Part shown: piece after piece, positions 25,003 through 42,200 of the stretch
Numbering within the stretch: position 1 is the stretch's first letter
How the letters are laid out: every line of letters begins with the position of its first letter
Assembly (NCBI GenBank): GCA_032620915.1
Contig: CP136052.1
Location: 1,588,501 to 1,652,500, forward strand
Source: Oscillospiraceae bacterium NTUH-002-81
Lineage (GTDB): Bacteria; Bacillota; Clostridia; Lachnospirales; Lachnospiraceae
Length of the DNA: 64,000 bases
Reading direction: 5' to 3'
The notes under the pieces: generated by a model
What the model was told of the DNA's origin: nothing
The model's database searches: none
The model's input: only the letters and a program-made list of their open reading frames with translations
Position numbers and translations under genes: made by a program

Positions 25003-25173
25003 ATACTTGAAAAAATATATACAGCATTGGGCGTAACATTATCGCAGTTTTTTCAGGAAGGTAATTCGGAGAATCTGACAGAAAAACGGAAAGAAGTTTT
25101 AAGGATATGGAACGATCTGAGTACAAATGAGCAGGAAACAGTAATGTCAATGCTGCGTGGACTTCAGAAGTAG
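25003..25173 (+). pseudogene. Remnant of an XRE-type HTH regulator (C-terminal part only)
   Basis: 57 codons, opened by a stop at 25000-25002, encode LEKIYTALGVTLSQFF followed by KRKEVLRIWNDLS and SMLRGLQK. This closely resembles the end of small cro/CI-type regulators common in Lachnospiraceae (last DNA-binding helix, then a short tail). The helix-turn-helix core upstream is missing: in the same frame an ATG at 24937 gives only a 21-codon unrelated peptide. The gene therefore appears to have decayed by internal deletion next to the riboswitch. Confidence 0.65.
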
Positions 25174-25302: not shown

Positions 25303-25385
25303 TAATAAGGAAACCGGCAAAACAGATGAAAGTCTGAGACGCAAAGCTACAGGGCCTGTAAAATGGCAGCCAGTTGCATGAAATG
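25303..25385 (+). ncRNA. Cyclic di-GMP-I (GEMM-I) riboswitch aptamer
   Basis: The conserved core is present in order: ACCGGCAAAAC, a P2 hairpin (CAGA-TGAAAG-TCTG) with GNRA-like loop, GACGCAAAGC, ACAGGGCCTGT (P3 base) and GGCAGCCAGTTGC. This is the GEMM-I pattern in which the G of GACGCAAAG and neighbouring bases hold c-di-GMP. A TATAAT at 25301-25306 would start transcripts near 25313, right at the aptamer. A terminator hairpin lies 6 bases downstream and the first signalling gene at 25471, so c-di-GMP probably controls read-through into the island. Confidence 0.9.
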
Positions 25386-25390
25386 AGGTG

Positions 25391-25416
25391 CACTGTCTGG
25401 CGGACAGTGTTTTTTT
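25391..25416 (+). terminator. Riboswitch expression-platform terminator
   Basis: CACTGTC and GACAGTG (7 bp, 5-base loop) followed by seven T residues. Its closeness to the aptamer suggests transcription control. I could not deduce from the sequence whether ligand turns the terminator on or off. Confidence 0.85.
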
Positions 25417-25470
25417 CGGTGTTATTTCATAGACGTAACCATAATGATTTTATTAGGAAAGAGAAAAAAT

Positions 25471-27243
25471 ATGAACATCAAAAAAGTACAAAGTGCAAGC
25501 CTTTTTCTGGCATGTATAGCAGCAACAGGACTTATGGGATGTGGGAAAACAGATGAAACATCAAAGAAACACGAAGCAATTACTTTTATGGCTCCTTATA
25601 TGGATGTGGACAGCTTTATAGAAGAAGTGCATAAAACATATCCGGAGATTGCGCTTGAAGTAATCCCGTACAGCGGAGCAAATACAACGGTGTATCTGAA
25701 TACGATACTGAAGGAAAATGATCTGCCGGATATCTGCACACTTTCCCTTTATGATCCGGAGCTGTTGGATCTCAGTGACAGGATGCTTGATCTTTCGGGT
25801 TATGCTTTCACAGATAATTATGTAGAATCCCGTCTGAAGGAGGTATCAGATGAAGGGGCGATCTATATGCTTCCATCTGCGTATAACTGTTTTGGTATTA
25901 CCCATAACAAAACATTATTAGAAAAACATGGATGGACAGTTCCGCAGTCGTTCCGGGAACTCGAACAGCTTGCCAAAGAAGCAGAGGAATCCGGGGTTCA
26001 GTTATGTTTGTCCCAGATCCAGTATCCGGGATATGGTTTCCAGTATTTATGCAATATTGCAGATACCGGATTTTTAAGCTCTCTGGATGGAAGACAGTGG
26101 CAGAAGGATTATCTGTCAGGGAAAGCAAATGTCAGTGATACAAAGGGTATGATGGACAGCATGGAATATATCCGGAAATGGAAAGACCTTGGTATGCTTG
26201 ACGGTAGCAACAGCGATCCGATCGATGATGCAGTAACAAGAGATGATTTTATTAAGGGAAATACGCTGTTTATGCTTGGATCACAGAATGGTATCACGGA
26301 TTCAGATGCTACAACAGATGAATTTGGACTGATGCCGTATCTGTCAGAAGATGGAAGTAAGAATGTCTACATATTGTCAGTGGGACGTTATTATGGGTTG
26401 AATAAAAAGTTAGAGGATGATCCGCAGAAACTGGAAGATGCGTTAAAGGTAATGGAAGTGCTGTCTACTGTTGAGGGAACATCTTCCCTTTACCCAGAGG
26501 CATCACTAAAAGCCAGTCTCCTTCCATTTAAGGATGCAAAGGCAGACGATACCTATTATGGTGATATCGTAGATGCGATCAATGCAGGAAATACGGCGCC
26601 GCTTATTTACTCTGGCTGGGAAAATACACTTGTCACTACAGGAACAAAAATGCTGGAGTATATGCAGGATAAAGCAACGATAGAAGATGTGGTAAAGCAG
26701 CTTGAGCATGATCAGGAAAGCGTGGTAAACAATAAGCCGGAAGTCATTACCACAACAACGGAAGTTATTTCTCAGGAGAATTGTGCAAAGCTGGTAGGCA
26801 GATGTTTTGCACAGGCAACTGACAGTGATCTGGCACTTGTTTCCCTGGGAACATGGATCAGTGGTAACGGGTTGAATCAGAACAATGACTGCGTAAGTTC
26901 AAAGATGTATGCAAAAGAACTTACAGTGGATGATCTCAGTGCGATCATTCCGACAGGCTGGTCGAGGACAATTCAGACGGTCAGTTTAACAGGAAAACAG
27001 ATAAGAGACCTATATAAAGAGGGATATGATGCAGTCGGTACAGGAAACAATTATCCTTATGTGCTGGTAAGTCCGGTGGAACTGGAAGGTGAGAAGCCTT
27101 ATCAGGTGGCTGTTTCCGGAATCAGCGAAAAACTTGCTTCGGAAGTGGAAGTGACAGACAGTGGTATTGTAGGCCTGGATGCGGCAAAAGAGTTTTTTGG
27201 GCAATTTAAGACTTTAAGTGAAGCAGACGCTGAATGGAAATAA
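25471..27243 (+). CDS. Lipoprotein solute-binding protein fused to a 5'-nucleotidase C-like domain (A)
   Basis: 590 residues. Lipobox LMGC with acylated Cys24. Residues of about 35-420 form a family 1 extracellular solute-binding domain (ITFMAPYMDV, NDLPDICTLS, GAIYMLPSAYNC). About 425-560 resemble the C-terminal domain of 5'-nucleotidases: NCAKLVGRCFAQATDSDLALVS, then DLSAIIPTGWSRTIQTVSLTGKQI. No metallophosphatase domain is present, so catalysis is unlikely. No permease or ATPase is nearby. The kinase gene starts 13 bases downstream, so it is probably a ligand receptor on the outer membrane face. ATG 25471 follows AGGAAAGAG. First gene after the c-di-GMP riboswitch. Confidence 0.82.
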   Translation: MNIKKVQSASLFLACIAATGLMGCGKTDETSKKHEAITFMAPYMDVDSFIEEVHKTYPEIALEVIPYSGANTTVYLNTILKENDLPDICTLSLYDPELLDLSDRMLDLSGYAFTDNYVESRLKEVSDEGAIYMLPSAYNCFGITHNKTLLEKHGWTVPQSFRELEQLAKEAEESGVQLCLSQIQYPGYGFQYLCNIADTGFLSSLDGRQWQKDYLSGKANVSDTKGMMDSMEYIRKWKDLGMLDGSNSDPIDDAVTRDDFIKGNTLFMLGSQNGITDSDATTDEFGLMPYLSEDGSKNVYILSVGRYYGLNKKLEDDPQKLEDALKVMEVLSTVEGTSSLYPEASLKASLLPFKDAKADDTYYGDIVDAINAGNTAPLIYSGWENTLVTTGTKMLEYMQDKATIEDVVKQLEHDQESVVNNKPEVITTTTEVISQENCAKLVGRCFAQATDSDLALVSLGTWISGNGLNQNNDCVSSKMYAKELTVDDLSAIIPTGWSRTIQTVSLTGKQIRDLYKEGYDAVGTGNNYPYVLVSPVELEGEKPYQVAVSGISEKLASEVEVTDSGIVGLDAAKEFFGQFKTLSEADAEWK

Positions 27244-27256
27244 GCGGAGGGGAAGG

Positions 27257-29560
27257 ATGCAGAAGGCAAAGAGTTACCGAAATTTAATATTGGGCTGCTG
27301 TATGGCTGGTATAGCGATGCTTCTTGCATTCTTTTTCCTGTATCATACTTATATCCGGGATATTATCTATGAAGAACGGTTAAACCAGATGGAAGAGATT
27401 ACCCGTCAGATGTTTCAAAATCTGGAGGATGTGATCGATTCCCACTGGGATCGGGTAACGGAAGAGTGCAATTACCTGAAAGATGCAAATATACAGACTA
27501 CAGATGAACTCTGTAAATATATGAAAAAGAAATATGACTTATCAGCATATGCAGATCATAAGATCACGTTGATGGCAGTGGATTCAGAGGGCGGATATTA
27601 CACAGAAGCTGGAAACAGAGGACTTTTCCGGGATCTGGATTATTTTGAAGATAATCCCGAACAGATCAGCTTTGTTTTTGATTCTATGACGGATAATCAG
27701 TCAGAGATGGTATTTGTGGATCGTCTGCCGGAACCAATACATCTTCAGAATGGAGAAAAGAAAACTTCAATCCTCTATTTTGGAATTGCCCAGGACATGG
27801 AACAGCTGAATCCTTATTTTAACTGCGATGCATATAATGGGAACAACAGTGTGTATGTTCTGGATGATAATGGCCTTAAACTGTTCAACAGCAATCAGGT
27901 GGAACTGATCAAGGGGCATAATGTTTTTTCTGTTTTACAGAATATGAAGTATCTTCACAGTTCTTCTTTTGACAAAATAAAGGCGGAACTGGAAGAAAAA
28001 GGCTGTAGTTATTCTAATGCGGTGTTGGATGGAACAGAATATTTTTACGGATTAAGAAGAATGGACAATGCCGAATGGACACTTATCTTTCTGGTTCCGG
28101 CAGAGTATGTTGCTACGAATACATTAAGACTTGTGAATTTTGTAACACTATTTATCGTTATCTTTACGGTTATCGCATCTGTCTGCGTTATGCTGGGAAT
28201 TTCTTTTGTTATGCGTAGAAACCAGCAGGAAGCGATCCGCGTGGAGCGGGAAAATAATGCGAAGCTGGAAACAGTGAATACAGAACTGCGGCAGGCAAAA
28301 AAGGCGGCAGAGGAAGCTTTTCAGGTAGCGCAGGAAGCGAGCAGATCCAAGAGCAGTTTTCTTGCAAATATGTCTCACGATATACGTACCCCTATGAATG
28401 CGATCATTGGTATTACATCATTGATCAGACATGATGCCGGTGATAAAAGCAAGGTAATAGAGTATGCGGATAAAATTGACACTTCCTCAAAGCATCTGTT
28501 AGGGATCATTAATGATGTTCTGGACATGAGTAAGATTGAAGCCGGAAAAACTGTTTTCAAATATTCTGACTTTTCTATTGTGGATCTTATACAGGAACTT
28601 GACACGATATTTTATTCTCAAATATATGAAAAGAAGCAGATTTTTACAATTACAAAAGAAAATATTTGGCATGAGTGGGTGAATGGGGATCGCGTCCATT
28701 TGATGCAGATTTTCAGCAACCTGCTGTCTAATGCAATAAAATATACACAGGAAGGTGGAGAAATTCAGCTTCTGGCGGAAGAATGTGAATCAAATTCATC
28801 TGTTTACGCAAAATACCGCTTTTTAGTCAGCGATAACGGTATGGGAATGTCGGCAGCTTTCAAGGATACGATCTTTGATGCGTTTACGCGTGCGGAAAGT
28901 TCCCTTACAAACAAAATACAGGGAACCGGACTTGGAATGGCGATTACCAGGAACCTGGTTGAGGCAATGGGAGGTACCATTGATGTGGAGAGTGAACCGG
29001 GACAGGGAAGCTGTTTTGAGGTTCTCATAGATCTGAAAATTGCAGAGGATAGAACAGCTGCTCTGGCGGCACAAGAAGAAACAGACGAGCAGGATGGTAA
29101 TATCCTGCAGGGAATGAGGTTCCTGTGTGCAGAGGATAATGAGCTGAATGCGGAGATCCTGACGGAACTGTTAAAGATTGAGGGTGCGAAGTGCACCATC
29201 TGTGAAAATGGTGAAGAGCTTTTGAAGTCATTTGAAAAGTCTGCTCCGGGGGATTATGACATGATCCTGATGGATGTGCAGATGCCTGTTATGAATGGTT
29301 ATGAGGCAACAAAAGCAATCCGCAGAAGTTCCCATGAACTGGCAAAGAAGATTCCGGTCATTGCCATGACCGCCAATGCATTCTCGGAGGATATTCAGCA
29401 TTCTCTGGCAGCCGGTATGAATGCACATGTTTCAAAACCGGTTGAGATGAGGGTACTGGAAAAGACGATCAGAAGCATAAAATCCTGCGGGGGGGTACCG
29501 AACCGCAGGTCATTGAATAGTAACAAATGGCAGGGAATCAGATATGAAAAGGATAGTTAG
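27257..29560 (+). CDS. Hybrid sensor histidine kinase with receiver domain (HK-A)
   Basis: 767 residues, intact. TM1 about 10-30, extracellular Cache-like sensor about 35-285, TM2 about 288-315, a short coiled linker, HisKA with His374 (NMSHDIRTPMNAI), HATPase with N box NLLSNAIKYT and G boxes DNGMGM and GTGLGMAI, then a receiver with Asp673 (ILMDVQMPVMNGYEA). ATG follows GGAGGGGAAGG. It partners the solute-binding lipoprotein just upstream. No HPt domain or DNA-binding output is in the window, so the output is unknown. The other three hybrid kinases here are broken; this is the only one read in a single frame. Confidence 0.92.
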   Translation: MQKAKSYRNLILGCCMAGIAMLLAFFFLYHTYIRDIIYEERLNQMEEITRQMFQNLEDVIDSHWDRVTEECNYLKDANIQTTDELCKYMKKKYDLSAYADHKITLMAVDSEGGYYTEAGNRGLFRDLDYFEDNPEQISFVFDSMTDNQSEMVFVDRLPEPIHLQNGEKKTSILYFGIAQDMEQLNPYFNCDAYNGNNSVYVLDDNGLKLFNSNQVELIKGHNVFSVLQNMKYLHSSSFDKIKAELEEKGCSYSNAVLDGTEYFYGLRRMDNAEWTLIFLVPAEYVATNTLRLVNFVTLFIVIFTVIASVCVMLGISFVMRRNQQEAIRVERENNAKLETVNTELRQAKKAAEEAFQVAQEASRSKSSFLANMSHDIRTPMNAIIGITSLIRHDAGDKSKVIEYADKIDTSSKHLLGIINDVLDMSKIEAGKTVFKYSDFSIVDLIQELDTIFYSQIYEKKQIFTITKENIWHEWVNGDRVHLMQIFSNLLSNAIKYTQEGGEIQLLAEECESNSSVYAKYRFLVSDNGMGMSAAFKDTIFDAFTRAESSLTNKIQGTGLGMAITRNLVEAMGGTIDVESEPGQGSCFEVLIDLKIAEDRTAALAAQEETDEQDGNILQGMRFLCAEDNELNAEILTELLKIEGAKCTICENGEELLKSFEKSAPGDYDMILMDVQMPVMNGYEATKAIRRSSHELAKKIPVIAMTANAFSEDIQHSLAAGMNAHVSKPVEMRVLEKTIRSIKSCGGVPNRRSLNSNKWQGIRYEKDS

Positions 29561-29573
29561 GGATAGACAGAAA

Positions 29574-30389
29574 ATGAAAGGAAAAAGAGTGATCGCAGGC
29601 ATTATGCTTGTAGGAATCTTAGCAGTCACCCTGGCAGGGTGCAAAAATACAGATGACAGTAAAAAAGAAACGGAAAAACCCGTCATTACGCTCGGCAGTG
29701 ACAATTATCCACCATACAATTATCTGAATGAGGATGGGGTACCGACAGGCATCGATGTAGAACTGGCTACAGAAGCCTTCAAAAGAATGGGCTATCAGGT
29801 GGAGGTTGTCCAGATCAACTGGGAGAAGAAAAAAGAACTGGTGGAGAGCGGAGAGATTGACTGTATCATGGGCTGCTTTTCCATGGAAGGACGCCTTGAC
29901 GATTACCGCTGGGCAGGGCCGTACATAGCAAGCCGTCAGGTGGTCGCTGTAAATAAGAACAGTGATATCTATAAACTGACTGACCTGGAGGGAAAGAACC
30001 TGGCTGTCCAGTCCACAACCAAACCGGAAAGCATCTTTCTGAACCGGACAGATGAAAGAATCCCAAAACTGGGAAATCTGATCAGTCTTGGACATCGGGA
30101 ACTGATCTATACGTTTCTGGGGAAAGGATATGTAGATGCAGCTGCAGCACACGAGGAATCTATCGTTCAGTATATGAAGGATTATGATGCAAGCTTTCGT
30201 ATCCTGGAAGAGCCTCTGATGATCACCGGAATAGGTGTCGCTTTTGCAAAAGAGGATGACAGAGGAATCTGTGAGCAGATGGACCAGACGCTGGAAGAAA
30301 TGCGTCTGGATGGCACATCCCTGAAAATCATTGAAAAATATCTGGATGATCCGGAAAAGTATCTGGAGGTGGATGATCTTGGATATTAA
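29574..30389 (+). CDS. Lipoprotein solute-binding protein, family 3 (B)
   Basis: About 271 residues. Lipobox LAGC after a hydrophobic signal (IAGIMLVGILAVTLAGC), then a family 3 (amino-acid/BvgS-like) binding fold: ITLGSDNYPPYNYLNEDGVPTGIDVEL and a second lobe with DLEGKNLAVQ. Start could be 29574 (used) or 29544, which overlaps the kinase by 17 bases. With no transport genes adjacent, it probably presents a small ligand, perhaps an amino acid, to the following kinase. Confidence 0.85.
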   Translation: MKGKRVIAGIMLVGILAVTLAGCKNTDDSKKETEKPVITLGSDNYPPYNYLNEDGVPTGIDVELATEAFKRMGYQVEVVQINWEKKKELVESGEIDCIMGCFSMEGRLDDYRWAGPYIASRQVVAVNKNSDIYKLTDLEGKNLAVQSTTKPESIFLNRTDERIPKLGNLISLGHRELIYTFLGKGYVDAAAAHEESIVQYMKDYDASFRILEEPLMITGIGVAFAKEDDRGICEQMDQTLEEMRLDGTSLKIIEKYLDDPEKYLEVDDLGY

Positions 30390-32584
30390 GAAAAAGAAAA
30401 AAGAAAAACGAATCCAGCTGCTCGGAGGCCTGCTCGGAATCTGTGTGGCTGTAGTCTCCCTGTTTTATTTCTTCCACGCAGAAAAGGCGGAAGCAGAGAA
30501 AAGAATGGTGGAGATTGTAAACTATGTGAAAGTGCAGTGTTCCACCTACACCCATTATAATGAATCTTCGGAATCCAAAAGCCTCCTCCGTGCCATTGAA
30601 AGTGCCAGACAGATGAGTACAAATATTTACATGGAAACAGAAAACGGCGGGCAGCTAAGCGAGGATTTCCTGAGAGAAAACCTGCAGACGCTCTGGGTGG
30701 ATGGTATCATTGTGCTGGATACAGAAGGAAAGACGGACTGTGAATACAGCACAGATGAATTTCTGGCAAACGAAATTACGGAGTATTTGCAAAAAGACAT
30801 TATCATGGATTTTGCCGGATATGAAGAAAGAACTTATTCGGAACGATTTGACAGGAAAGAGGGATCACATATCGACATTGCAGCCTGTGCCAGAAAAGAT
30901 GTGCCGGGTATGGTTGCAATTTACTATTACACCTCTCCCGAATTTGCCAGAAACTATACCCTGACGCTACAAGGGCTTTTAAATGGTTATAGCGTTCAGA
31001 AGGATGGAACGATTCTTGTAGCAGACGACGGGATCGTTGTTGCCAGTAATGATGAGAGTCTGTTAGGGCAGAATACAGCCGACAACGGAGTTGTTCAGGC
31101 AATGAAAAAGCATACAGACAGTCAGCACATTTATCATTTGAAGAATGAAGGATCCGGATGTTACGGAATCATGCTGAAGCAGCGGGATTATTATATTTAT
31201 GCGTATCTCCCGGATACGGAAGTCTTTCATAATCTTCCATTAAGTGTAGCAGGTGTTATTTTTCTTTATCTCCTGATATTCAGTATATTCTGGTTCTGGT
31301 CATACAGAACCGATCAGGCACATCAGAAACAGGAACAGGAAAAAGATGAAAAATATAAAGCAGAACTTCTGATAGCAGCAAAAAAGGCAGAAGCTGCCAA
31401 TGAGGCAAAAACCGAGTTTCTCCAGCGGATGAGCCATGATATCCGGACTCCGATCAATGGGATCTGCGGTTTGGTCAATATGGCAGACTATTACGCAGAC
31501 GATATGGAGAAGCAGACGGAATACAGGGAAAAGGTGAAAGCGGCCTCCAATCTGTTGCTGGAACTGGTAAATGATGTCCTGGACATGAGTAAGCTTGAGG
31601 CAGGTGAAATCGTTCTGGAAGAGGTTCCATTTAATCTGAGCAGTATTTTCAGGGAAGTATTTGTTGTGATCGAGCAGATGGCTGCAGAACAGAATATCCG
31701 GATCTTGTGGGAGAAAAAAAGAAATCACACACCGGGATTTTATTGGAAGTCCGGAGTATGTGAAACGGGTGATGATGAATATCCTGTCGAATGCGATAAA
31801 ATATAACAGAGAAAACGGACAGATCTATATCAGCTGCATGGAAATTCCATCCGAACAGCCGGAAATGACGATAATGGAATTTGTCTGCCGGGATACAGGA
31901 ATCGGAATGACTGAGGAGTTCCAGAAATATGTGTTTGAACCATTTGCACAGGAACACACAGGAAGCCGCACAAAATTTGCAGGAACAGGCCTGGGAATGT
32001 CGATTGCAAAGAATCTGGTCGAGAAAATGGGCGGAAGCATTACCTTTGAAAGTGAACAAGGTACGGGAACTACATTTGTGATCCGGGTTCCGTTCCGCAT
32101 TGATACAGAAAGGGATGGCAGAGTTGAAACTGGAGAAAAAACAGAAGCTTCCATCCGCGGGCTGCACATTCTTCTGGCAGAAGATAATGAGCTGAACATG
32201 GAAATCGCTGAATTTATGCTTCAGAATGAAGGCGCCGATGTGACAAAAGCATGGAATGGTCAGGAAGCTGTTGAACTATTCAGAAATAGTGAACCTGGTG
32301 AATTTGATGTCATTCTCATGGACATTATGATGCCGGTCATGAATGGTTATGAAGCCACAAAGATGATCAGGTCTCTGGACAGAGAGGATGCAAAGGCAAT
32401 ACCGATCATTGCAATGACAGCAAATGCGTTCACGGAGGACAGAATAAGAGCAAAAGAAGCAGGAATGGATGAACATATTGCGAAGCCTGTTGATGTGGAA
32501 TTACTGATAAAAGTAATTCATAATTATAAAAACCACACGGATAAAGGGAATAAAATAATATGGATAAAAAACAAAAAATCCTGA
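30373..32584 (+). pseudogene. Hybrid sensor histidine kinase with receiver domain (HK-B), frameshifted
   Basis: First frame: TM1 (LLGGLLGICVAVVSLFYFF), extracellular sensor, TM2 (VAGVIFLYLLIFSIFWFW), HisKA with His355 (RMSHDIRTPINGI). It runs out of frame at an A7 run (31714-31720), where the protein turns to nonsense before a stop at 31804-31806. The +1 frame continues exactly at the expected place (FIGSPEYVKRVMMNILSNAI, HATPase) through GTGLGMSI and a receiver (ILMDIMMPVMNGYEA) to 32584. One A fewer restores about 736 residues. Start chosen at ATG 30373, inside the tail of the binding-protein gene and behind GGAGG. Error, slippage or pseudogene cannot be told apart from sequence alone. Confidence 0.85.
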
Positions 32585-32927
32585 TTGTAGATATTTCTTT
32601 AAATCAAAGAGCGGCATGCATTCGATTGATTACAATGCAATTTCAGGTCAATTAATGATCCTGAACGGAAAACAGCAGATATTATGTCAGAGGTATAATC
32701 CGAAATTTGATCTGTTCAAAGAATTCGGAGTAAATGAAGAAGACGTTCAATATATTCGGGTTTTGTTACATCAGACATCTGTACAAAATAAAGAAATCTC
32801 TGTACAGATAAAAGCAAAGGTGGAAAATGACAGTCAGATGTACAAGTTGAAATTGCATACGTTGTGGCCGCCTTTAAAGAAGGATGGATACATTGGAATC
32901 GTTGGATATTTTGACGCTGTAAAATAG
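32560..32927 (+). pseudogene. Decayed response-regulator-like gene
   Basis: ATG 32560 begins MDKKQKILIVDISLNQRAAC, the first strand of a receiver domain (normally ILIVDDS), but the frame stops after 31 codons. A second open frame (to 32927) encodes a soluble fragment, ILNGKQQILCQRYNPKFDLF then YIRVLLHQ and GYIGIVGYFDAV, which could be part of a PAS-like sensor. The receiver middle with its phospho-acceptor Asp is missing. It looks like a regulator gene reduced by internal deletion between two kinase modules. Confidence 0.5.
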
Positions 32928-32961
32928 AAGAATGCAAAGGAAGCTCAGAGGGGGATTTGTA

Positions 32962-34812
32962 ATGGAAAAGAAAAAATGGAAAAAGGTTTTGTCTGTATCT
33001 TTCGTGATGGTGACAGCGATATCACTTCTGTCAGGCTGCGGCGGGAAGAGTGCAGAAAAAGAAGCTGCAGAAACGATCACGGTGTATTTATGGAGCACAA
33101 ACCTGTATGAAAAATATGCACCATACATTCAGGAACAGCTCCCGGATATCAATGTTGAATTTGTAGTCGGGAATAATGATCTGGATTTCTATAAGTTTCT
33201 GAATGAAAACGGTGGTTTGCCGGATATTATAACCTGCTGTCGGTTTTCCCTGCATGACGCAAGTCCCCTGAAAGACAGTCTGATGGATCTTTCCACAACC
33301 AATGTTGCCGGTGCTGTCTATGATACATACCTCAACAATTTTATGAATGAGGATGGAAGCGTAAACTGGCTTCCCGTGTGTGCGGATGCCCATGGTTTTG
33401 TAGTCAACAAAGATCTTTTTGAAAAGTATGATATCCCGTTGCCAACAGATTATGAAAGCTTTGTCTCTGCCTGCCAGGCATTTGACCAGGTGGGAATCCG
33501 TGGCTTTACTGCAGACTATTATTATGATTATACCTGCATGGAGACATTGCAGGGTCTGTCAGTATCAGACCTGTCTTCTGTGGACGGACGCAAGTGGCGT
33601 ACCACCTACAGTGACCCGGATAATACAAAGAGAGAAGGTCTGGACAGCACAGTCTGGCCGCAGGCGTTTGAACGTATGGAGCAGTTCATCCGAGATACCG
33701 GCCTGAGTCAGGAGGATCTGAATCTGAATTATGATGATATCGTTGAGATGTATCAAAGTGGCAGGCTTGCCATGTACTTTGGCAGTTCTGCCGGTGTAAA
33801 AATGTTTCAGGATCAGGGCATCAACACAACCTTTCTTCCATTCTTTCAGGAGAACGGTGAAAAGTGGATTATGACTACGCCATATTTCCAGGTGGCTTTA
33901 AACCGTGACCTGACAAAGGATGAGACACGTAGAAAGAAAGCAATGCAGGTACTGAACACAATGCTTTCAGAGAATGCACAGAACCGGGTCGTTAGTGAGG
34001 GGCAGGATCTGTTAAGCTATAGTCAGGATGTGGATATCCATCTTACGGAATATATGAAAGATGTAAAATCCGTGATCGAGGAAAATCACATGTATATCCG
34101 CATTGCATCAAATGACTTTTTCTCTGTGTCAAAGGACGTGGTTTCGAAGATGATCTCAGGCGAATACGATGCAGGGCAGGCTTACCAGTCATTTGCTTCT
34201 CAGCTTCTTGAGGAAGAAGCTGCTTCTGAGGATATCGTGCTGGATTCACAGAAGTCTTATTCCAACCGCTTTCACAGCAGTGGCGGGAACGCGGCATATT
34301 CGGTTATGGCAAACACTCTGCGCGGCATGTATGGGGCGGATGTGCTGATCGCAACCGGAAACAGTTTTACGGGAAATGTGCTGAAAGCCGGTTACACAGA
34401 AAAAATGGCAGGTGATATGATCATGCCAAATGGTCTTTCGGCTTACAGCAGCAAGATGAGCGGTGCCGAACTGAAAGAGACAGTCAGAAACTTTGTAGAA
34501 GGCTATGAGGGAGGCTTTATTCCGTTTAACCGTGGCTCTCTGCCAGTGGTCAGTGGTATTTCTGTGGAAGTCAAAGAAACAGATGATGGCTACACATTGA
34601 GCAAAGTTACAAAAGACGGAAAAAAAGTTCAGGACAATGATACTTTCACGGTAACCTGTCTTGCAATACCAAAACACATGGAAGCTTATCCGGCAGATGA
34701 GAATATTGTGTTTGCTGGAGGAGATACCACTGTGAGAGACACCTGGACAGGATATATTTCAGATGGTGATGCTATTCTTGCAGAGCCTGAAGATTACATG
34801 ACTTTGAGGTGA
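32962..34812 (+). CDS. Lipoprotein solute-binding protein fused to a 5'-nucleotidase C-like domain (C)
   Basis: 616 residues, a paralogue of the protein at 25471 with the same layout: lipobox LLSGC near residue 24, a family 1 binding domain (TITVYLWSTNLYEKYAP, GGLPDIITCC, FVVNKDLFEKYD), then from about 440 a 5'-nucleotidase C-like domain (MANTLRGMYGADVLIATGN, KMSGAELKETVRNFVEGYEGG, TFTVTCLAIPKHM). ATG 32962 follows AGAGGGGGATTTG. It ends 5 bases before the kinase start. The repeat of the binding-protein/kinase pair supports a sensory partnership. Confidence 0.82.
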   Translation: MEKKKWKKVLSVSFVMVTAISLLSGCGGKSAEKEAAETITVYLWSTNLYEKYAPYIQEQLPDINVEFVVGNNDLDFYKFLNENGGLPDIITCCRFSLHDASPLKDSLMDLSTTNVAGAVYDTYLNNFMNEDGSVNWLPVCADAHGFVVNKDLFEKYDIPLPTDYESFVSACQAFDQVGIRGFTADYYYDYTCMETLQGLSVSDLSSVDGRKWRTTYSDPDNTKREGLDSTVWPQAFERMEQFIRDTGLSQEDLNLNYDDIVEMYQSGRLAMYFGSSAGVKMFQDQGINTTFLPFFQENGEKWIMTTPYFQVALNRDLTKDETRRKKAMQVLNTMLSENAQNRVVSEGQDLLSYSQDVDIHLTEYMKDVKSVIEENHMYIRIASNDFFSVSKDVVSKMISGEYDAGQAYQSFASQLLEEEAASEDIVLDSQKSYSNRFHSSGGNAAYSVMANTLRGMYGADVLIATGNSFTGNVLKAGYTEKMAGDMIMPNGLSAYSSKMSGAELKETVRNFVEGYEGGFIPFNRGSLPVVSGISVEVKETDDGYTLSKVTKDGKKVQDNDTFTVTCLAIPKHMEAYPADENIVFAGGDTTVRDTWTGYISDGDAILAEPEDYMTLR

Positions 34813-34817
34813 GAAAA

Positions 34818-37767
34818 ATGGACAGTAAGAATCATAATACAAAAAGAGAGAAACATGTCATAAGAAAACGGTTAAAGATAGCTGTCTTTATTGCTGTTTC
34901 TCTTGGAATTGTTTTGATGGTTTTCCGATATTTTAGATATGTGTCGAAAACTGTTTATGACGAAAGTGTTTCTCATCTGACGGAAGTGTTTCATCAGTCT
35001 GATAACATGCTGCGGGAACTGACAGATAAGAATCTGACCTATCTTCATATGTGGAGTGAGAACCTGCAGAATATTTCCGGCGAAGATGAAATTCGTGATT
35101 ATATAAAGAAAGCGCAGGAAAATGCCGGATTTTTGGAATTCTTTTTTCTGTCGGACGGCGGAAACTATAAGATGGCAACAGGGGAAACCGGGTACCTTGG
35201 ATTACAGGAAAATATTGAAGAGGAGATCCGGCAGGGAAATGATGTGATTGCGAATGCGGCAGTTCCCGGAAAATCTCAGCTGCTTGTTTTTGCCACTCCT
35301 AAGGCTCACGGAACTTATCAGGGATTTGAATATGATGCCATTGCCATTGCCTATGAAAATTCTGATATCGTAGATGTACTGGATATTTCTGCTTTCGATG
35401 GAAATGCCCGGAGTTTTGTTGTTCGTCCGGATGGCCGTGTTGTGGTTGATCATTCTTCTGAGGCATGGGGAAATGTGTATAATTTCCTCGGTGTTCTGAG
35501 AGAACATTCGGATATGTCTGAAAAAGAGATCGATGAACTTTCAGAGAAGTTTAAAGCGGGACGTACCGATGCGATGCTGCTAAATCTGGATGGAAGGAAC
35601 TACTATCTGGTCTATGAAAAATCGGATATCCAGGACTGGATGTTTTTGGGACTTGTCCAGGCGGATATTGTCAATGCCAGTATGAACAGTTTGCAGTTTC
35701 ATACAATGCTTCTCGTGGGAGCGGTCGTGCTCTGTATTGCGGCTTTTTTTATCAGTTTTATTATTCAAAAAGGCAGAACGGACCTCAGGAGGAAGGATAC
35801 GGAGATTCTGTATCGGGATGAGCTGTTTCAAAAGCTTTCAATGAAAGTGGATGACGTTTTCCTGATGCTGGACGCAAAAACATATCAGGCAGAGTACGTC
35901 AGTCCGAATGCGGAAAGGCTGCTGGGCATTACGGTAGAACAGATTCGTAAAGATATTTGTGTCCTGGGAAAACTGCATCTGGCAGAACAGGAAGATCCAG
36001 AAAAAAATTATCTGGAGGAAATCCGGGTTCATGAACAGAGGGAATGGGATTTTGAATATGTTCATCTGAAGACAGGAGAAAGACGCTGGTTCCATAATAT
36101 TGCAATGGGCAGTGAGGTAAACGGGAAAAAGAAATATATCCTGGTTATGTCAGACCGTACCTCTGACTGGAAAATGAACCAGGCACTTTCCGAGGCAGTA
36201 CGTGCGGCGGAGACAGCAAACAGGGCAAAGAGTACTTTTCTTTCCAATATGTCTCACGATATCCGGACGCCAATGAATGCGATCATCGGTTTTACCACAC
36301 TGGCTGTAAGTAATATTGATGACAAGAAAAAGGTTCGGGATTATCTGGGTAAGATTCTTTCATCCGGCAATCATCTGCTTTCACTGCTCAACGATATACT
36401 GGATATGAGCCGGATTGAGAGTGGAAAGATCCATCTGGAAGAAACGGAGGTCAGTCTGTCGGATGTGCTTCATGATCTGAAGACAATCATCAGTGGGCAG
36501 ATCCATGCGAAGCAGCTGGAGCTTTATATGGATGCCATGGATGTGACGAATGAGGATGTCTATTGTGATAAGACGCGGCTAAACCAGGTGCTGCTGAATC
36601 TTTTGTCAAATGCAGTTAAGTTTACACCTGCAGGAGGAACCGTTTCTGTCCGGATCAGACAGTGTCCCGGAACACAGAAGGGCAGTGAGCTGTACGAGAT
36701 CCGGGTAAAGGATAATGGAATCGGCATGAGCCGGGAATTCGTACAGAAGATTTTTTTCTCCATTTGAGAGGGAGCGGACTTCCACCGTCAGCAGGACCCA
36801 GGGTACAGGGCTTGGCATGGCCATTACCAAGAACATTGTGGATATGATGGGCGGAAGCATTGAGGTTCAGACAGAACAGGGCAAAGGTACCGAATTTATT
36901 GTCCGTCTGCCATTCCGGATCCAGACTGAGCACCAACGGATAGAGAAGATCGCAGAGCTGGAAGGCCTTAAGGCGCTGGTTGTGGATGATGACTTCAATA
37001 CCTGTGACAGCGTGACAAAAATGCTCGTGAGGGTTGGAATGCGTTCGGAATGGACACTTTCCGGCAGGGAAGCTGTTCTCCGCGCACGACAGTCTATGGA
37101 ACTGGGAGATGCGTTCCACGCTTATATCATCGACTGGTGTCTGCCGGACATGAATGGCATTGAAGTTACCCGCCAGATCCGCAGTCTTGGGGATGATACA
37201 CCGATCATTATCCTGACTGCATATGACTGGTCAGATATCGAAGTGGAAGCAAGAGCGGCCGGGGTAACTGCTTTCTGCGCAAAACCAATGTTCATGTCAG
37301 ATATCAGAGATACCCTGATGACTGCTATCGGCCAGAAGCAGGCAGAGGCAGAGGATACAATCCTTCCGGCAGCAGATTCGGATTTCAGGGGCAGATGTAT
37401 ACTGCTTGTAGAAGACAATGAACTGAACAGCGAAATTGCGGTGGAGATCCTTAATGAATATGGCTTCCTGGTTGATACCGCAGAAAATGGTGCAGAAGCA
37501 GTGGAGAAAGTTAAGAATTCAGCGCCAGGTAATTATGATCTGGTGCTGATGGATATACAGATGCCGGTAATGAATGGATATGAGGCTACCAGACAGATCC
37601 GTGCGCTGGATGATCCGGCCCGGGCGGGAATTACCATTCTTGCCATGACTGCCAATGCCTTTGATGAGGACAGAAAGAAAGCCCTGGAATGTGGTATGGA
37701 TGGGTTCTTATCCAAGCCTGTCGTTGTTGAGGAACTGCTTGCCGTATTACAGAAGAATCTGGATTAA
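34818..37767 (+). pseudogene. Hybrid sensor histidine kinase with PAS and two receivers (HK-C), frameshifted
   Basis: First frame: TM1 (IAVFIAVSLGIVLMVF), extracellular sensor, TM2 (MLLVGAVVLCIAAFFISFI), PAS (VDDVFLMLDAKTYQAEYVS), HisKA with His480 (NMSHDIRTPMNAI) and HATPase N box (LLNLLSNAVKFT). At a T7 run (36751-36757) it hits a stop (KIFFSI). The +1 frame resumes with FERERTSTVSRTQGTGLGMAI and two receivers (IIDWCLPDMNG and LMDIQMPVMNG). One T fewer gives about 982 residues. ATG 34818 follows GAGGTGAG. Last gene of the island. Confidence 0.85.
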
Positions 37768-37945: not shown

Positions 37946-40900
37946 TTACTCCGCCGCCTGCTTTTTCAGATTCTTATTGGCGGTGGACAGCATGAGCTTG
38001 ATCCGGTTCAGCTGGTTGACTTCGCTGGCACCGGGGTCATAGTCGATGGCCACGATATTTGCCAGCGGGTACTGGTGCCGCAGCTCTTTGATGACGCCTT
38101 TTCCTACCACATGGTTGGGCAGACAGCCGAAGGGCTGGGTACACACGATGTTCGGTGTGCCGCTGTGGATCAGCTCCAGCATTTCTCCTGTCAGGAACCA
38201 TCCCTCACCGGTCTGGTTACCCAGGGAAACGATGTCTTTTGCCATGGCAGCGGTGTCCTCGATCCGTGCCGGCGGTGTGAAGTGACGGCTCTTCTCAAAT
38301 TCTTTCCGGGCCGTGTTCCGCACCTTTTCCAGGAACCAGATACCTAAGTTGCACAGCCGGGCGGTCTTCTTGCTCATGCCCAGCTTCTCAGCCTTGAAGT
38401 TGGCGTTGTAGAAGCAGTAGAAAAAGAAGTCCAGCAGGTCGGGAACGACAGCCTCAGCGCCCTCACTTTCCAGAAGATCCACCAGATAGTTGTTGGCAGC
38501 GGGCAGGAATTTGACGAGGATCTCGCCGACAATGCCCACCCGGGGCTTCTGCTCATCGGTGATGGGCAGGCTGTCAAAGTCTTCGATGATCTCCCGGCAG
38601 AGCTTCTTGAACCTGCTGTAGGAAACCTTGGGTGCTGTCAGGAATCTGATGCAGGCAGCTACCCATTTCTCATGCATGGCGTTGGCGCTTCCGGGCTCTT
38701 TTTCATAAGGGCGCATCCGGTACAGGCAGCGCATGAAAATGTCACCGAACACAATCGCGTACACGGCTTTCATTGCCAGGGGGAGGGTCAGCTTGAAGCC
38801 CGGGTTGGATTCCAGACCGCTTAGGTTGATGGAAATCACCGGAATCTGCTCATAACCGGCTTTTTTCAGTGCCCGGCGGATGAAGCCGATGTAGTTGGAA
38901 GCCCGGCAGCCACCGCCTGTCTGGGAAATAATGACAGCTGTTTTACGCAGGTCATATTCTCCGGACAGCAGGGCATCCATGATCTGGCCCACCACCATCA
39001 GGGATGGATAGCAGGCATCGTTGTTGACATATTTCAGGCCGGTATTGACGGCGTTCTTATTGTCGTTGGGCAGTACCACCAGATGGTAACCGCAGGAATT
39101 TAAGGCCGGTTCCAGAAGCTCGAAATGGATCGGGGACATCTGAGGGCACAGGATTGTATAATTCTTGCGCATTTCCTCGGTGAATACCACGCGCTCGATG
39201 TTGGCCGGATGGATGGTGCGCTCCTCCGGATATTTTTTCCCGCACGCGCACGGCGGACAGCAGGGAACGGATGCGGATGCGGGCGGCGCCCAGGTTGTTC
39301 ACCTCGTCGATCTTCAGGCAGGTGTAGATCTTGCCGGAATTGCTCAGAATATCGTTGACTGCATCGGTGGTCACGGCGTCCAGCCCACAGCCGAAGGAGT
39401 TCAGCTGGATGAGATCCAGATCCTCCCGCAGCTTCACATAGTTGGCTGCTGCATACAGACGGGAGTGGTACATCCACTGATCCATGACGATCAGCGGCCG
39501 CTCCACCGGATTCAGGTGGGCCACAGATTCTTCGGTCAGCACGGCAATGCCGTAGGAGGTGATGAGCTCCGGGATACCGTGGTTGATCTCGGGATCCAGA
39601 TGATAGGGACGGCCTGCCAGAACGATGCCACGGCGCTTGTGTTCTTCCATCCAGCGTAGTACTTCCTCTCCCTTTTTCTGCATATCTTTGTGAAGCTGCT
39701 GCATTTCTGCCCAGGCAGCGTGTACGGCCTCGGTGATTTCGCCCTTGGAAATGTGGAAATCGTTGCCCAGCTCCTCATACAGCCGGGGGATGAGAACCTC
39801 TTCGCTCTGGAAGGAGAGGAAAGGATTGCGGAAATCAATGTCCGGATTGCGCAGCTCTTCAATATTATTTTTGATGTTCTCCGCGTAGGAGGTGACAATG
39901 GGGCAGTTGTAGTGGTTGTTGGCATCCGCATACTCGATGCGCTCGTAGGGGATGCACGGGTAGAAGATGAATTTCAGCCCCTGTTTCAGCAGCCATTCCA
40001 CATGTCCGTGGGCCAGCTTGGCCGGGTAGCACTCGGATTCACTGGGGATGGACTCGATGCCCATCTCGTAGATCTTCCGGTTGGATTCCGGGGAAAGGAT
40101 CACGCGGAAGCCCAGTTTGGTAAAGAACGTATACCAGAACGGGTAGTTCTCGTACATGTTCAGTACCCGGGGGATACCCACCGTGCCACGGGGCGCTTCC
40201 TCCTCCGGAAGAGGATCATAGGAAAACAGCCGCTCGTTCTTGTATGTAAACAGGTTCGGTACATCCTTGCCGGTCTTTTCCTTACCCACACCTTTTTCAC
40301 AGCGGTTGCCGGTGATGAACCGCCGGCCGTTGCTGAATTTGTTGATGGTCATGAGACAGTTGTTCGTACAGCCGTGGCAGCGGGCCATGGAGGTGGAGAA
40401 GGTCAGATTCTCGATCTCCTCAATGGAAAGCATGGAGCTGACCGTGCCCGCCTCGTAGCGCTCCCGGGCGATGAGGGCAGCGCCGAAGGCGCCCATGATA
40501 CCGGCGATATCCGGGCGGATGGCCTCGCAGTCGGCGATCTTCTCAAAGCTGCGGAGAACGGCATTATTATAGAAGGTACCGCCCTGGACGACAATATTTT
40601 TGCCCAGCTCTGCGGCGGAAGACACCTTGATGACCTTGAACAGGGCGTTTTTGATGACGGAGTAAGCCAGCCCTGCGGAGATGTCCGCCACGGAAGCGCC
40701 CTCCTTCTGCGCCTGTTTTACCTTGGAGTTCATGAAAACGGTGCAGCGGGTACCCAGATCGATGGGGTGCTTGGCAAACAGTGCCTCCCTGGCGAAATCC
40801 TGCACCGAGTAGTTCAACGACTGGGCAAAGGTCTCGATGAAGGAGCCGCAGCCCGAGGAACAGGCCTCGTTGAGCTGTACGCTGTCAACCGTATGATTTT

Positions 40901-42200
40901 TGATCTTGATGCATTTCATGTCCTGGCCGCCGATGTCCAGAATGCAGTCTACGTTTTTGTCAAAGAACGCGGCAGCATAGTAGTGGGCGACAGTCTCCAC
41001 CTCACCCTCATCCAGCATCAGGGCAGCTTTGATCAGCGCTTCCCCGTAACCGGTGGAGCAGGAGTAGACGATATGGGCGTCTTCGGGAAGCAGCCGGTGG
41101 ATCTCCCTGATGGACTCGATGGTGGTAGCCAGCGGACTTCCGTTGTTGCTGTGATAAAAGGAGTACAGAAGGGAGCCGTCCTCGCCCACCAGCGCCGTCT
41201 TGGTGGTGGTGGAACCGGCGTCAATGCCCAGATAGCAGTTGCCCTTGTAGGTGGAAAGATCGCCCTTCTTTACTTTATACTGGTTCTGGCGCTCCAGGAA
41301 ACGGTCAAAATCCGCCTCATCGGTGAACAGCGGATCCAGACGTTCCACCTCGAACTCCATCTTGATCTTGCCGGAAAGCTTTTTCACCATGTCAGAGAGG
41401 GTCAGGGACACCTCCTCCTTGTGGTTCATGGCCGAACCGATAGCCGCAAACAGGTGAGAATGGTTCGGGATGATGGTGTGCTCCTCGTCCAGCTTCAGCG
41501 TGCGGATGAATGCGTTGCGAAGCTCCGGCAGGAAATGTAAGGGGCCGCCCAGGAAAGCGATATGGCCGCGGATCGGTTTGCCGCAGGCCAGGCCGCTGAT
41601 GGTCTGGTTCACCACTGCCTGGAAAATGGAGGCGGACAGGTCTTCCTTTGTTGCGCCCTCGTTGATCAGCGGCTGGATATCTGTCTTGGCGAAAACGCCG
41701 CAGCGGGCTGCGATGGGATAAATGGCCTTGTAATCTCTGGCATATTCGTTCAGTCCCACAGCGTCTGTCTGCAGCAGTGCGGCCATCTGGTCGATGAAGG
41801 AGCCGGTACCGCCTGCGCAGATGCCGTTCATCCGCTGTTCCACGTTGCCGCCCTCAAAATAAATGATCTTGGCGTCCTCGCCGCCCAGCTCGATGGCCAC
41901 GTCCGTCTTCGGGGCATAGTAGGTCAGCGCGGTGGATACGGCGATCACCTCCTGGACGAAGGGAACGCCCAGATGTTTGGCCAGCGTCAGGCCGCCGGAA
42001 CCGGTGATCATGGGGGAAACCTGCAGGTCGCCCAGCTCCGCGTGCGCGTCGGAAAGCAGGGAGCTCAGCGTCTCCTGGATGTTGGCGTAGTGTCGTTTGT
42101 ATGCGGAAAAAAGAATCTTCTGATCAGGGTCAAGAATAGAAATCTTTACTGTGGTGGAACCGATATCTATTCCGAGACTGTTCATCTTAGACTGTTCCAT
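37946..42200 (-). pseudogene. Giant acyl-CoA dehydratase activase (HgdC-like, BadF/BadG type), frameshifted
   Basis: Restored length is about 1417 residues, the usual size of this family. Two tandem ASKHA ATPase domains ([14 protein letters not shown] at the N-terminus and [14 protein letters not shown] around 325), cluster-type cysteines ([18 protein letters not shown]), a cysteine-rich stretch [11 protein letters not shown], then DUF2229 and a dehydratase-subunit-like C-terminal region (TGGGCRASNYIGF). The frame breaks at a T6 run (39233-39238; A6 on the coding strand), and removal of one base joins REK to YPEERT. Such proteins activate or resemble 2-hydroxyacyl-CoA dehydratases with an ATP-driven Fe-S electron jump. 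No separate dehydratase subunits are encoded nearby. Confidence 0.88.

What the first reader, a model, noticed from the sequence alone, without database searches (positions are those of the whole stretch)
25303..37767. c-di-GMP riboswitch island of solute-binding lipoproteins paired with hybrid histidine kinases, without transport genes
Seen: a GEMM-I aptamer and terminator, then binding protein / hybrid kinase modules three times (25471/27257, 29574/30373, 32962/34818) with overlaps or gaps of at most 13 bases. All binding proteins have lipoboxes, all kinases have two membrane segments and an extracellular sensor. No ABC permease or ATPase lies in or beside the island. Known: solute-binding proteins can act as co-receptors for kinases (LuxP-LuxQ type). 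Inference: the lipoproteins capture ligands and present them to the partner kinases, and c-di-GMP sets the level of this sensory battery. Neither HPt nor DNA-binding output is present, so phosphate must go to distant partners.
Basis: partly seen in the sequence, partly recalled or inferred. Interest (0 to 1): 0.85.

Follow-up and report, generated by a model that had tools for sequence, protein, structure and literature searches.

The report
c-di-GMP-switched battery of paired sensors
A gut bacterium keeps a row of surface 'catcher' proteins, each paired with its own signalling kinase, behind an RNA switch for the messenger c-di-GMP, and the evidence suggests that these kinases feed back on the same messenger.

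Summary
The core observation holds. A c-di-GMP-I aptamer plus terminator (25306-25410) precedes three lipoprotein/hybrid-kinase pairs, with no ABC permease within 30 kb.
The pairing is real. In relatives the matching sensor follows SBP1 in 11 of 13 loci. A sensor or kinase follows SBP3/4-type genes in 27 of 30 loci (2 in this genome). In one set 32 of 32 adjacent pairs (30 distinct) are type-matched although cassette order differs; four distant pairs elsewhere are not. The leader family also serves single-chain SBP_bac_3-kinase fusions. All four c-di-GMP-I switches found in this genome precede kinase genes.
New here: a likely output. The only HPt gene detected in this genome adjoins a GGDEF-receiver-HD-GYP regulator. 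In two Faecalibacterium loci that regulator lies between SBP-kinase pairs. In G239 and a Blautia an HPt follows the kinases behind the switch. In that Blautia a regulator copy has its own c-di-GMP-I switch.
Best model: c-di-GMP (probably OFF) sets the level of exchangeable co-receptor/kinase cassettes whose relay ends in c-di-GMP turnover. Contacts, ligands, phosphotransfer and sign are inferred. New variant of known kinds.

The parts
25024..25173 (+). C-terminal 49 codons of a Cro/CI-type regulator whose 110-aa form precedes the same leader in L212 (remnant, island edge)
25306..25381 (+). c-di-GMP-I (GEMM-I) aptamer
   Evidence: RF01051 56.6 bits
25390..25410 (+). intrinsic terminator stem, followed by a T run
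25471..27243 (+). SBP1: lipoprotein, sugar-type solute-binding fold plus extra C-terminal domain
27257..29560 (+). HK1: two membrane segments, dCache-like sensor, HisKA-HATPase-REC
29574..30389 (+). SBP2: lipoprotein, SBP_bac_3 (amino-acid type)
30373..31806 (+). HK2, first piece (sensor, HisKA); frame broken near an A run
31760..32584 (+). HK2, second piece (HATPase, REC)
32616..32927 (+). 103-aa ORF without Pfam match between pairs 2 and 3
32962..34812 (+). SBP3: lipoprotein, SBP_bac_8/1 plus 5_nucleotid_C-like C-terminal domain
34818..36767 (+). HK3, first piece (dCache-like sensor, PAS, HisKA, part of HATPase); frame broken near a T run
36817..37767 (+). HK3, second piece (end of HATPase, two REC)

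Best explanation
The island is one array of exchangeable co-receptor/kinase cassettes under a c-di-GMP-I riboswitch. Shown by sequence: the leader (promoter-like region, aptamer, terminator) and three lipoprotein binding proteins, each followed by a hybrid kinase of its own type. Inferred: each ligand-loaded lipoprotein (SBP1 sugar-like, SBP2 amino-acid-like) docks on the extracellular sensor of its partner and sets its kinase activity. The phosphoryl group passes His to Asp inside the kinase, then to the single HPt protein encoded at C1:2913547-2913753, then to the receiver of the neighbouring GGDEF-REC-HD-GYP protein, which makes or breaks c-di-GMP. c-di-GMP in turn acts on the four c-di-GMP-I switches found in this genome, all in front of kinase genes. 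By the terminator/antiterminator layout, and by analogy with C. difficile class I switches, c-di-GMP probably turns the array OFF, so it is on at low c-di-GMP.
For: Leader and aptamer. Adjacency: sensor directly downstream in 11 of 13 SBP1-type loci of relatives; sensor or kinase directly downstream in 27 of 30 SBP3/4-type loci, 2 of the 30 being this genome's own. Type matching: 32 of 32 adjacent pairs, 30 distinct. Single-chain fusions SBP_bac_3-HisKA-HATPase-REC in operons with this leader or aptamer: L065, L067, L071, L072, L081, L214, L078. All 4 own GEMM-I found precede kinase genes. Output: the only PF01627 match of the genome beside GGDEF-REC-HD; GGDEF, HDxGK and HHExxDGxGYP motifs in 6 of 6 homologues checked. 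GGDEF-REC-HD lies between HK1 and SBP2 in 2 Faecalibacterium loci and directly before an SBP2-type gene in 5 of 5. An HPt follows the kinases behind the switch in G239 and Blautia MSJ-9. In that Blautia a GGDEF-REC-HD gene itself lies behind a c-di-GMP-I aptamer. Co-occurrence in 250 genomes of SBP3/4-type genes and GGDEF-REC-HD aligned over all three domains: 9 genomes with both, 1.0 expected, p 9e-9, not corrected for relatedness.
Against: No contact, phosphotransfer or c-di-GMP response was measured. In this genome HPt and GGDEF-REC-HD lie 1.3 Mb from the island, and that gene is frame-broken near its end. In the 21 module genomes 2 (G020, G029) lack a match at E 1e-60 and 2 (G302, G016) match over receiver-HD only. 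9 of 18 SBP3/4 genomes lack the three-domain match and 5 of its 14 holders lack SBP3/4; counting any match (109 of 250) it is 14 of 18, p 0.003. HPt lies beside this regulator in 6 of 21 genomes, and 11 of 21 have more than one HPt match. My receiver-motif filter hit 3 of 6 homologues. Type matching fails for 4 of 27 pairs: distant SBP3-like genes (34-36%) followed by sensors nearest type 1. The aptamer is found at only 3 of 13 relatives' SBP1 loci, some with short upstream sequence. In L074 the short-type GEMM-I is followed by a PAS hybrid kinase and then an SBP_bac_3, a permease and an ABC ATPase, so such switches can also front a transporter. HK2 and HK3 are broken in this assembly.
Confidence: 0.58

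Rival explanations
1. Open loop: c-di-GMP sets the level of the co-receptor/kinase array as described, but the relay ends in DNA-binding or other regulators, and the HPt/GGDEF-REC-HD pair serves other inputs.
For: Many receiver domains are encoded in the genome (many of the 32 matches align over the receiver only). HPt and GGDEF-REC-HD are unlinked to the island here. G020 and G029 have modules without a GGDEF-REC-HD match.
Against: Only one HPt found in the genome, beside GGDEF-REC-HD. Linkage in Faecalibacterium. A c-di-GMP-I aptamer in front of GGDEF-REC-HD in Blautia.
Confidence: 0.26
2. The lipoproteins are orphan transport binding proteins that deliver solutes to permeases encoded elsewhere, and the kinases sense their own ligands directly through dCache-like domains.
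For: SBP1 resembles sugar-transport binding proteins such as RafE and SBP2 amino-acid ones. 25 permease matches exist elsewhere. The HK1 sensor model matches dCache domains solved with small ligands. In L074 a switch operon carries a complete SBP_bac_3 transporter.
Against: No PF00528 permease within 30 kb of the island or 24 kb of the second SBP-kinase operon. Conserved kinase adjacency. Single-chain SBP-kinase fusions. A C-terminal domain not covered by the listed transporter SBPs.
Confidence: 0.12
3. A decaying island: the frameshifts in HK2 and HK3 and the truncated upstream regulator show remnants of a once mobile sensory set.
For: Frame breaks in HK2, HK3, an SBP1 paralogue and GGDEF-REC-HD. 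Truncated regulator at 25024-25173.
Against: A 736-aa protein identical over 94% of the HK2 piece is in the collection. The two breaks looked at lie near homopolymer runs. SBP1, HK1, SBP2 and SBP3 are open, and HK2 and HK3 are open in relatives.
Confidence: 0.1

Closest known systems
XylFII-LytS and CuaD-CuaS-CuaR (clostridial three-component systems; PMC10384115, passages read)
   Same: Surface solute-binding protein acting through a two-segment membrane histidine kinase encoded next to it; the passages report a two-hybrid test of SBPs with the sensor ectodomain.
   Different: There a separate regulator is encoded with the kinase (DNA-binding output recalled). Here the kinases are hybrid, several pairs are arrayed, no output lies in the island, and a c-di-GMP riboswitch stands in front.
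LuxP-LuxQ (recalled; NCBIfam LuxQ model)
   Same: Binding protein plus hybrid kinase that relays through an HPt.
   Different: HK1 scores 289 bits against a LuxQ cut-off of 1200, and only over the kinase part. Lipoproteins; several inputs; c-di-GMP switch.
CmrRST of C. difficile (PMC6837544, passages; PMC11477304, passages)
   Same: A histidine-kinase operon whose level is set by a c-di-GMP riboswitch.
   Different: [quoted passage not shown] Here class I, predicted OFF, SBP-kinase pairs and a proposed c-di-GMP-turnover output.
NspS-MbaA (PMC9993111, start of the abstract seen in the listing)
   Same: A binding protein that tunes c-di-GMP.
   Different: There NspS and MbaA are the sensing and transducing pair itself. 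Here a hybrid kinase and HPt are proposed in between.
EvgS/BvgS-type kinases (recalled; BvgS 4q0c and EvgS model seen)
   Same: SBP_bac_3 domain on a hybrid kinase, as in the fused relatives.
   Different: In the window the binding protein is a separate lipoprotein.

Membership tests
c-di-GMP-I riboswitch (RF01051) | aptamer above Rfam's gathering score | tested here: met
   56.6 bits against 35
c-di-GMP-I riboswitch (RF01051) | expression platform between aptamer and gene | tested here: met
   terminator 25390-25410, alike in relatives
c-di-GMP-I riboswitch (RF01051) | binds c-di-GMP and changes expression | not testable with these tools
   needs in-line probing and a reporter
SBP-coupled three-component system (XylFII-LytS / CuaDSR type) | binding-protein gene next to a two-segment membrane kinase, kept in relatives | tested here: met
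SBP-coupled three-component system (XylFII-LytS / CuaDSR type) | separate response regulator in the operon | tested here: not met
   only kinases with attached REC in the island; in two Faecalibacterium loci a GGDEF-REC-HD protein
SBP-coupled three-component system (XylFII-LytS / CuaDSR type) | physical SBP-sensor complex | not testable with these tools
   no co-folding of two chains offered
LuxQ (NCBIfam NF041947) | score above curated cut-off | tested here: not met
   288.8 bits against 1200, kinase part only
Hybrid histidine kinase | HisKA, HATPase_c and REC on one chain | tested here: met
   HK1; HK2 and HK3 only as two pieces each here, on one chain in relatives
SBP_bac_3 (PF00497), SBP2 | score above gathering | tested here: met
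   92.1 bits against 26.4
5_nucleotid_C (PF02872), C-terminal domain of SBP1 and SBP3 | score above gathering | tested here: inconclusive
   SBP3 23.9 against 23.6; SBP1 none, 11 of 21 members of the alignment match at E 0.001; only PDB hit up to E 1: NAD nucleotidase, E 0.022
dCache sensor domain | Pfam dCache_1 above gathering or fold match | tested here: inconclusive
   HK3 24 bits against 45; HK1 model (pLDDT 72) matches dCache structures, best TM by target in the list 0.68
HPt phosphotransfer protein (C1:2913547-2913753) | PF01627 above gathering, His in AAHTLKG | tested here: met
   46.2 bits against 24.6; only match in the genome
c-di-GMP-turnover response regulator (GGDEF-REC-HD-GYP) | GGDEF, receiver and HD domains with catalytic motifs | tested here: met
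   activity not tested, and the own copy is frame-broken near its C-terminus

The most novel reading that the evidence does not exclude
A widespread gut-Firmicutes signalling architecture: a c-di-GMP-I leader acts as a common 'socket' behind which exchangeable, horizontally moving co-receptor/kinase cassettes (split or fused) are plugged in. They converge through one or few HPt proteins on a bifunctional GGDEF-REC-HD-GYP enzyme, so that the cell's c-di-GMP level decides which outside signals may change c-di-GMP. This would be a closed sensory loop in which the messenger gates its own sensors.
Probability: 0.43. Interest if true: 0.82.

Novelty: new variant of a known kind. Interest (0 to 1): 0.7.

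Why it matters
Hybrid kinases without an encoded HPt or output leave their wiring open. Here genome context gives a testable circuit with named parts: four switches, a battery of co-receptor/kinase pairs, one HPt and one c-di-GMP enzyme. It would make c-di-GMP riboswitches regulators of perception as well as of motility and adhesion, and it offers natural SBP-kinase fusions and shuffled cassettes for studying how binding proteins talk to sensors.

Tried and rejected
Rejected: plain ABC-transport island here (no PF00528 permease within 30 kb), though a relative's switch operon (L074, G200) does hold a transporter after a PAS hybrid kinase, and Blautia L019 has an ABC ATPase gene (PF00005, kind not determined) 1.7 kb after HK1. 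Rejected: chance juxtaposition. Rejected: LuxQ membership. Not supported: site-specific cassette recombination; the repeats found are kinase-core homology and short matches, with none at cassette borders. The C-terminal domain of SBP1 was not assigned by fold: the VIA-align rows span model residues 28-424 only, and a profile search gave one weak NAD-nucleotidase hit. The ON or OFF sign was judged from the layout (antiterminator hairpin -4.8, terminator stem -7.4 kcal/mol in isolation) and from the C. difficile rule (PMC11477304, passages). Eight paper searches (capped listings, and passages of four papers) listed no title or abstract start that describes an SBP-kinase array under a c-di-GMP-I switch; this is not proof of absence.
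Full report

HK2 and HK3 are each in two frames, with the break near an A or T run. In relatives the genes are open (HK2 in L020; most listed HK3 relatives have 983-993 aa), and a 736-aa protein listed without source matches the HK2 piece at 100% over 94%, so assembly indels are likely. The own GGDEF-REC-HD gene and an SBP1 paralogue are also broken, which fits an indel-prone assembly but does not prove it. The SBP2/HK2 overlap is 17 nt. Pair 3 is separated by 377 nt holding a 103-aa ORF without Pfam match. No terminator-like site was found between the pairs, but a single transcript is an inference.

The pairing is conserved. For SBP1, 11 of 13 relatives' loci (10 named, 3 unnamed) have the matching sensor directly downstream; L031 has a weak sensor match upstream and L027 has none. 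A broken SBP1 paralogue in this genome also has no kinase (L012). For SBP3/4-type proteins (E 1e-40), 18 of 250 family genomes, this one included, hold 30 loci; 27 of 30 have a sensor or kinase directly downstream. The exceptions are L227 (a second SBP follows, then a sensor), L232 (a tandem SBP near the end of the record) and L237 (no kinase found). In the set, 32 of 32 adjacent pairs (30 distinct) join an SBP to the sensor of its own type. In the set, which overlaps it, 23 of 27 do; the other four (L229, L230, L231, L238) are distant SBP3-like proteins (34-36% identity) followed by sensors nearest type 1. Cassette orders differ: 1-2-3 in the window, 1-2 in Brotaphodocola, 4-2, 2-3, 3 alone, and 4 followed by a fused kinase; one locus keeps a scrap of SBP4 between the switch and SBP3 (L069).

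The leader is the constant part. A roughly 300-nt leader is 65-95% identical, pair by pair over aligned bases, among 15 loci whose first gene is SBP1, 2, 3 or 4, an SBP_bac_3-kinase fusion or a GGDEF gene. Of nine further kinases scanned, seven (L065, L067, L071, L072, L078, L081, L214) have SBP_bac_3, HisKA, HATPase_c and REC on one chain, and two (L074, L117) are PAS hybrid kinases. One short-type locus, L074, goes on from a kinase to a complete SBP_bac_3 ABC transporter. In this genome all four switches found precede kinase genes: the window; a second SBP-kinase pair with a divergent CHASE-GGDEF gene (L014); an ORF with HATPase and two REC but no HisKA match (L011); and a PAS kinase (L013).

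Mobility. In Hominifimenecus SBP1 is 91% and SBP3 89% identical although EF-Ts is 72%, while Blautia has EF-Ts 85% but SBP1 76%. SBP3 identity does not follow EF-Ts (rho 0.09, 8 genomes); SBP1 follows weakly (rho 0.58, p 0.06, 11 genomes). G194 is taken as Hominifimenecus because its matches lie at the same places as those of G303. The window keeps only the end of a regulator gene that is complete before the same leader in L212. Exchange between lineages is likely; no mechanism was found.

The output. In two Faecalibacterium loci (L023, L025) the order is SBP1, HK1, a GGDEF-REC-HD protein, SBP2, then a sensor 28% identical to that of HK2; in 5 of 5 Faecalibacterium genomes the GGDEF-REC-HD gene is followed by an SBP2-type gene. 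The window's genome has one close homologue (56% identity), and the next gene is an HPt protein, the only PF01627 match in the genome. Over 21 chosen module genomes, 19 match the GGDEF-REC-HD query at E 1e-60, 17 of them over the GGDEF part as well, and 2 do not match. All 21 have an HPt match, exactly one in 10. HPt adjoins this regulator in 6 of 21 (in G302 a receiver-HD frame without a GGDEF motif), and a hybrid kinase in 5 (G239, G271 with a stop inside the match, G301, G016, G029). Behind the aptamer, G239 reads SBP4, HK4, fused kinase, HPt; Blautia MSJ-9 reads two kinases (one scanned: fused), then HPt. In that Blautia genome a GGDEF-REC-HD gene lies behind a c-di-GMP-I aptamer (59.4 bits) and, by eye, a terminator hairpin.

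Co-occurrence. In 250 family genomes 109 match the GGDEF-REC-HD query at E 1e-60; matches over all three domains (E up to 1e-160, a class I set by eye) are in 14. Longer frames among the rest may carry diverged GGDEF domains. Of 18 SBP3/4 genomes 9 are in that class (1.0 expected, Fisher p 9e-9) and 14 have any match (p 0.003). GEMM-I occurs in 15 of 18 against 91 of 250 (p 3e-5). The three searches show the same tallies for the draw of 250, which I take to be one set; nearly all genomes come from different genera, but relatedness was not otherwise corrected.

How it most likely works. c-di-GMP binding favours the terminator; the free leader can pair the 3' strand of the aptamer with the first arm of the terminator. 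This suggests OFF, as reported for C. difficile class I switches (PMC11477304, passages). When c-di-GMP is low the array is made; ligand-loaded lipoproteins engage their own sensors; phosphate goes kinase His, attached REC, HPt, then the receiver of GGDEF-REC-HD-GYP; c-di-GMP changes and acts back on the switches. Every step after 'array is made' is inference. Whether the loop amplifies or damps depends on whether phosphorylation favours synthesis or breakdown, which sequence does not tell.

Known or new. Binding-protein co-receptors (XylFII-LytS, CuaDSR, recalled LuxPQ), a c-di-GMP-switched kinase operon (CmrRST) and a binding protein that tunes c-di-GMP (NspS-MbaA) are each known. Eight searches of the open library (capped listings, with passages of four papers) showed no report of the combination. 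I rate it a new variant of a known kind.

Noticed in passing
window 25024-25173: In-frame C-terminal remnant of a 110-aa Cro/CI-type regulator that is complete before the same riboswitch leader in L212; its start is missing in the window.
   Followed up: partly
window 37946-39190 and 39057-42200 (- strand): Two overlapping ORFs in different frames look like one large activase/dehydratase-type gene split by a frameshift, another hint of assembly indels (family name recalled).
   Followed up: no
L012:7821-9448 (own genome 678.0-679.4 kb): Frame-broken SBP1 paralogue (46-50% identity) without kinase, beside a gene that looks like a serine recombinase and other mobile-element-like genes (gene names recalled).
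   Followed up: partly
L014:14610-16355: CHASE-GGDEF-PAS diguanylate cyclase divergent from the second GEMM-I/SBP/kinase operon of this genome.
   Followed up: partly
L070 and L072: A related c-di-GMP-I leader stands in front of GGDEF genes, i.e. a c-di-GMP switch before a probable c-di-GMP synthase.
   Followed up: partly
L171:1435-3665 (- strand), Blautia sp. MSJ-9: GGDEF-REC-HD response regulator behind a c-di-GMP-I aptamer and a terminator-like hairpin.
   Followed up: yes
L074 (G200): Short-type GEMM-I, then a PAS hybrid kinase, then SBP_bac_3, permease and ABC ATPase genes: a switch operon that does include a transporter.
   Followed up: partly
L229 and L232: Tandem SBP1-like and SBP3-like genes; in L229 a single kinase with a type-1-like sensor follows, perhaps two co-receptors for one kinase.
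   Followed up: no
L011:1765-3445: GEMM-I followed by an ORF with HATPase and two REC but without sensor or HisKA match: truncated, frame-broken or a soluble variant.
   Followed up: no
SBP1/SBP3 C-terminal domains (window 26743-27240, 34237-34809): A 5'-nucleotidase-C-like domain on binding proteins; no phosphatase domain was matched. A nucleoside-type ligand or a docking role is possible.
   Followed up: partly
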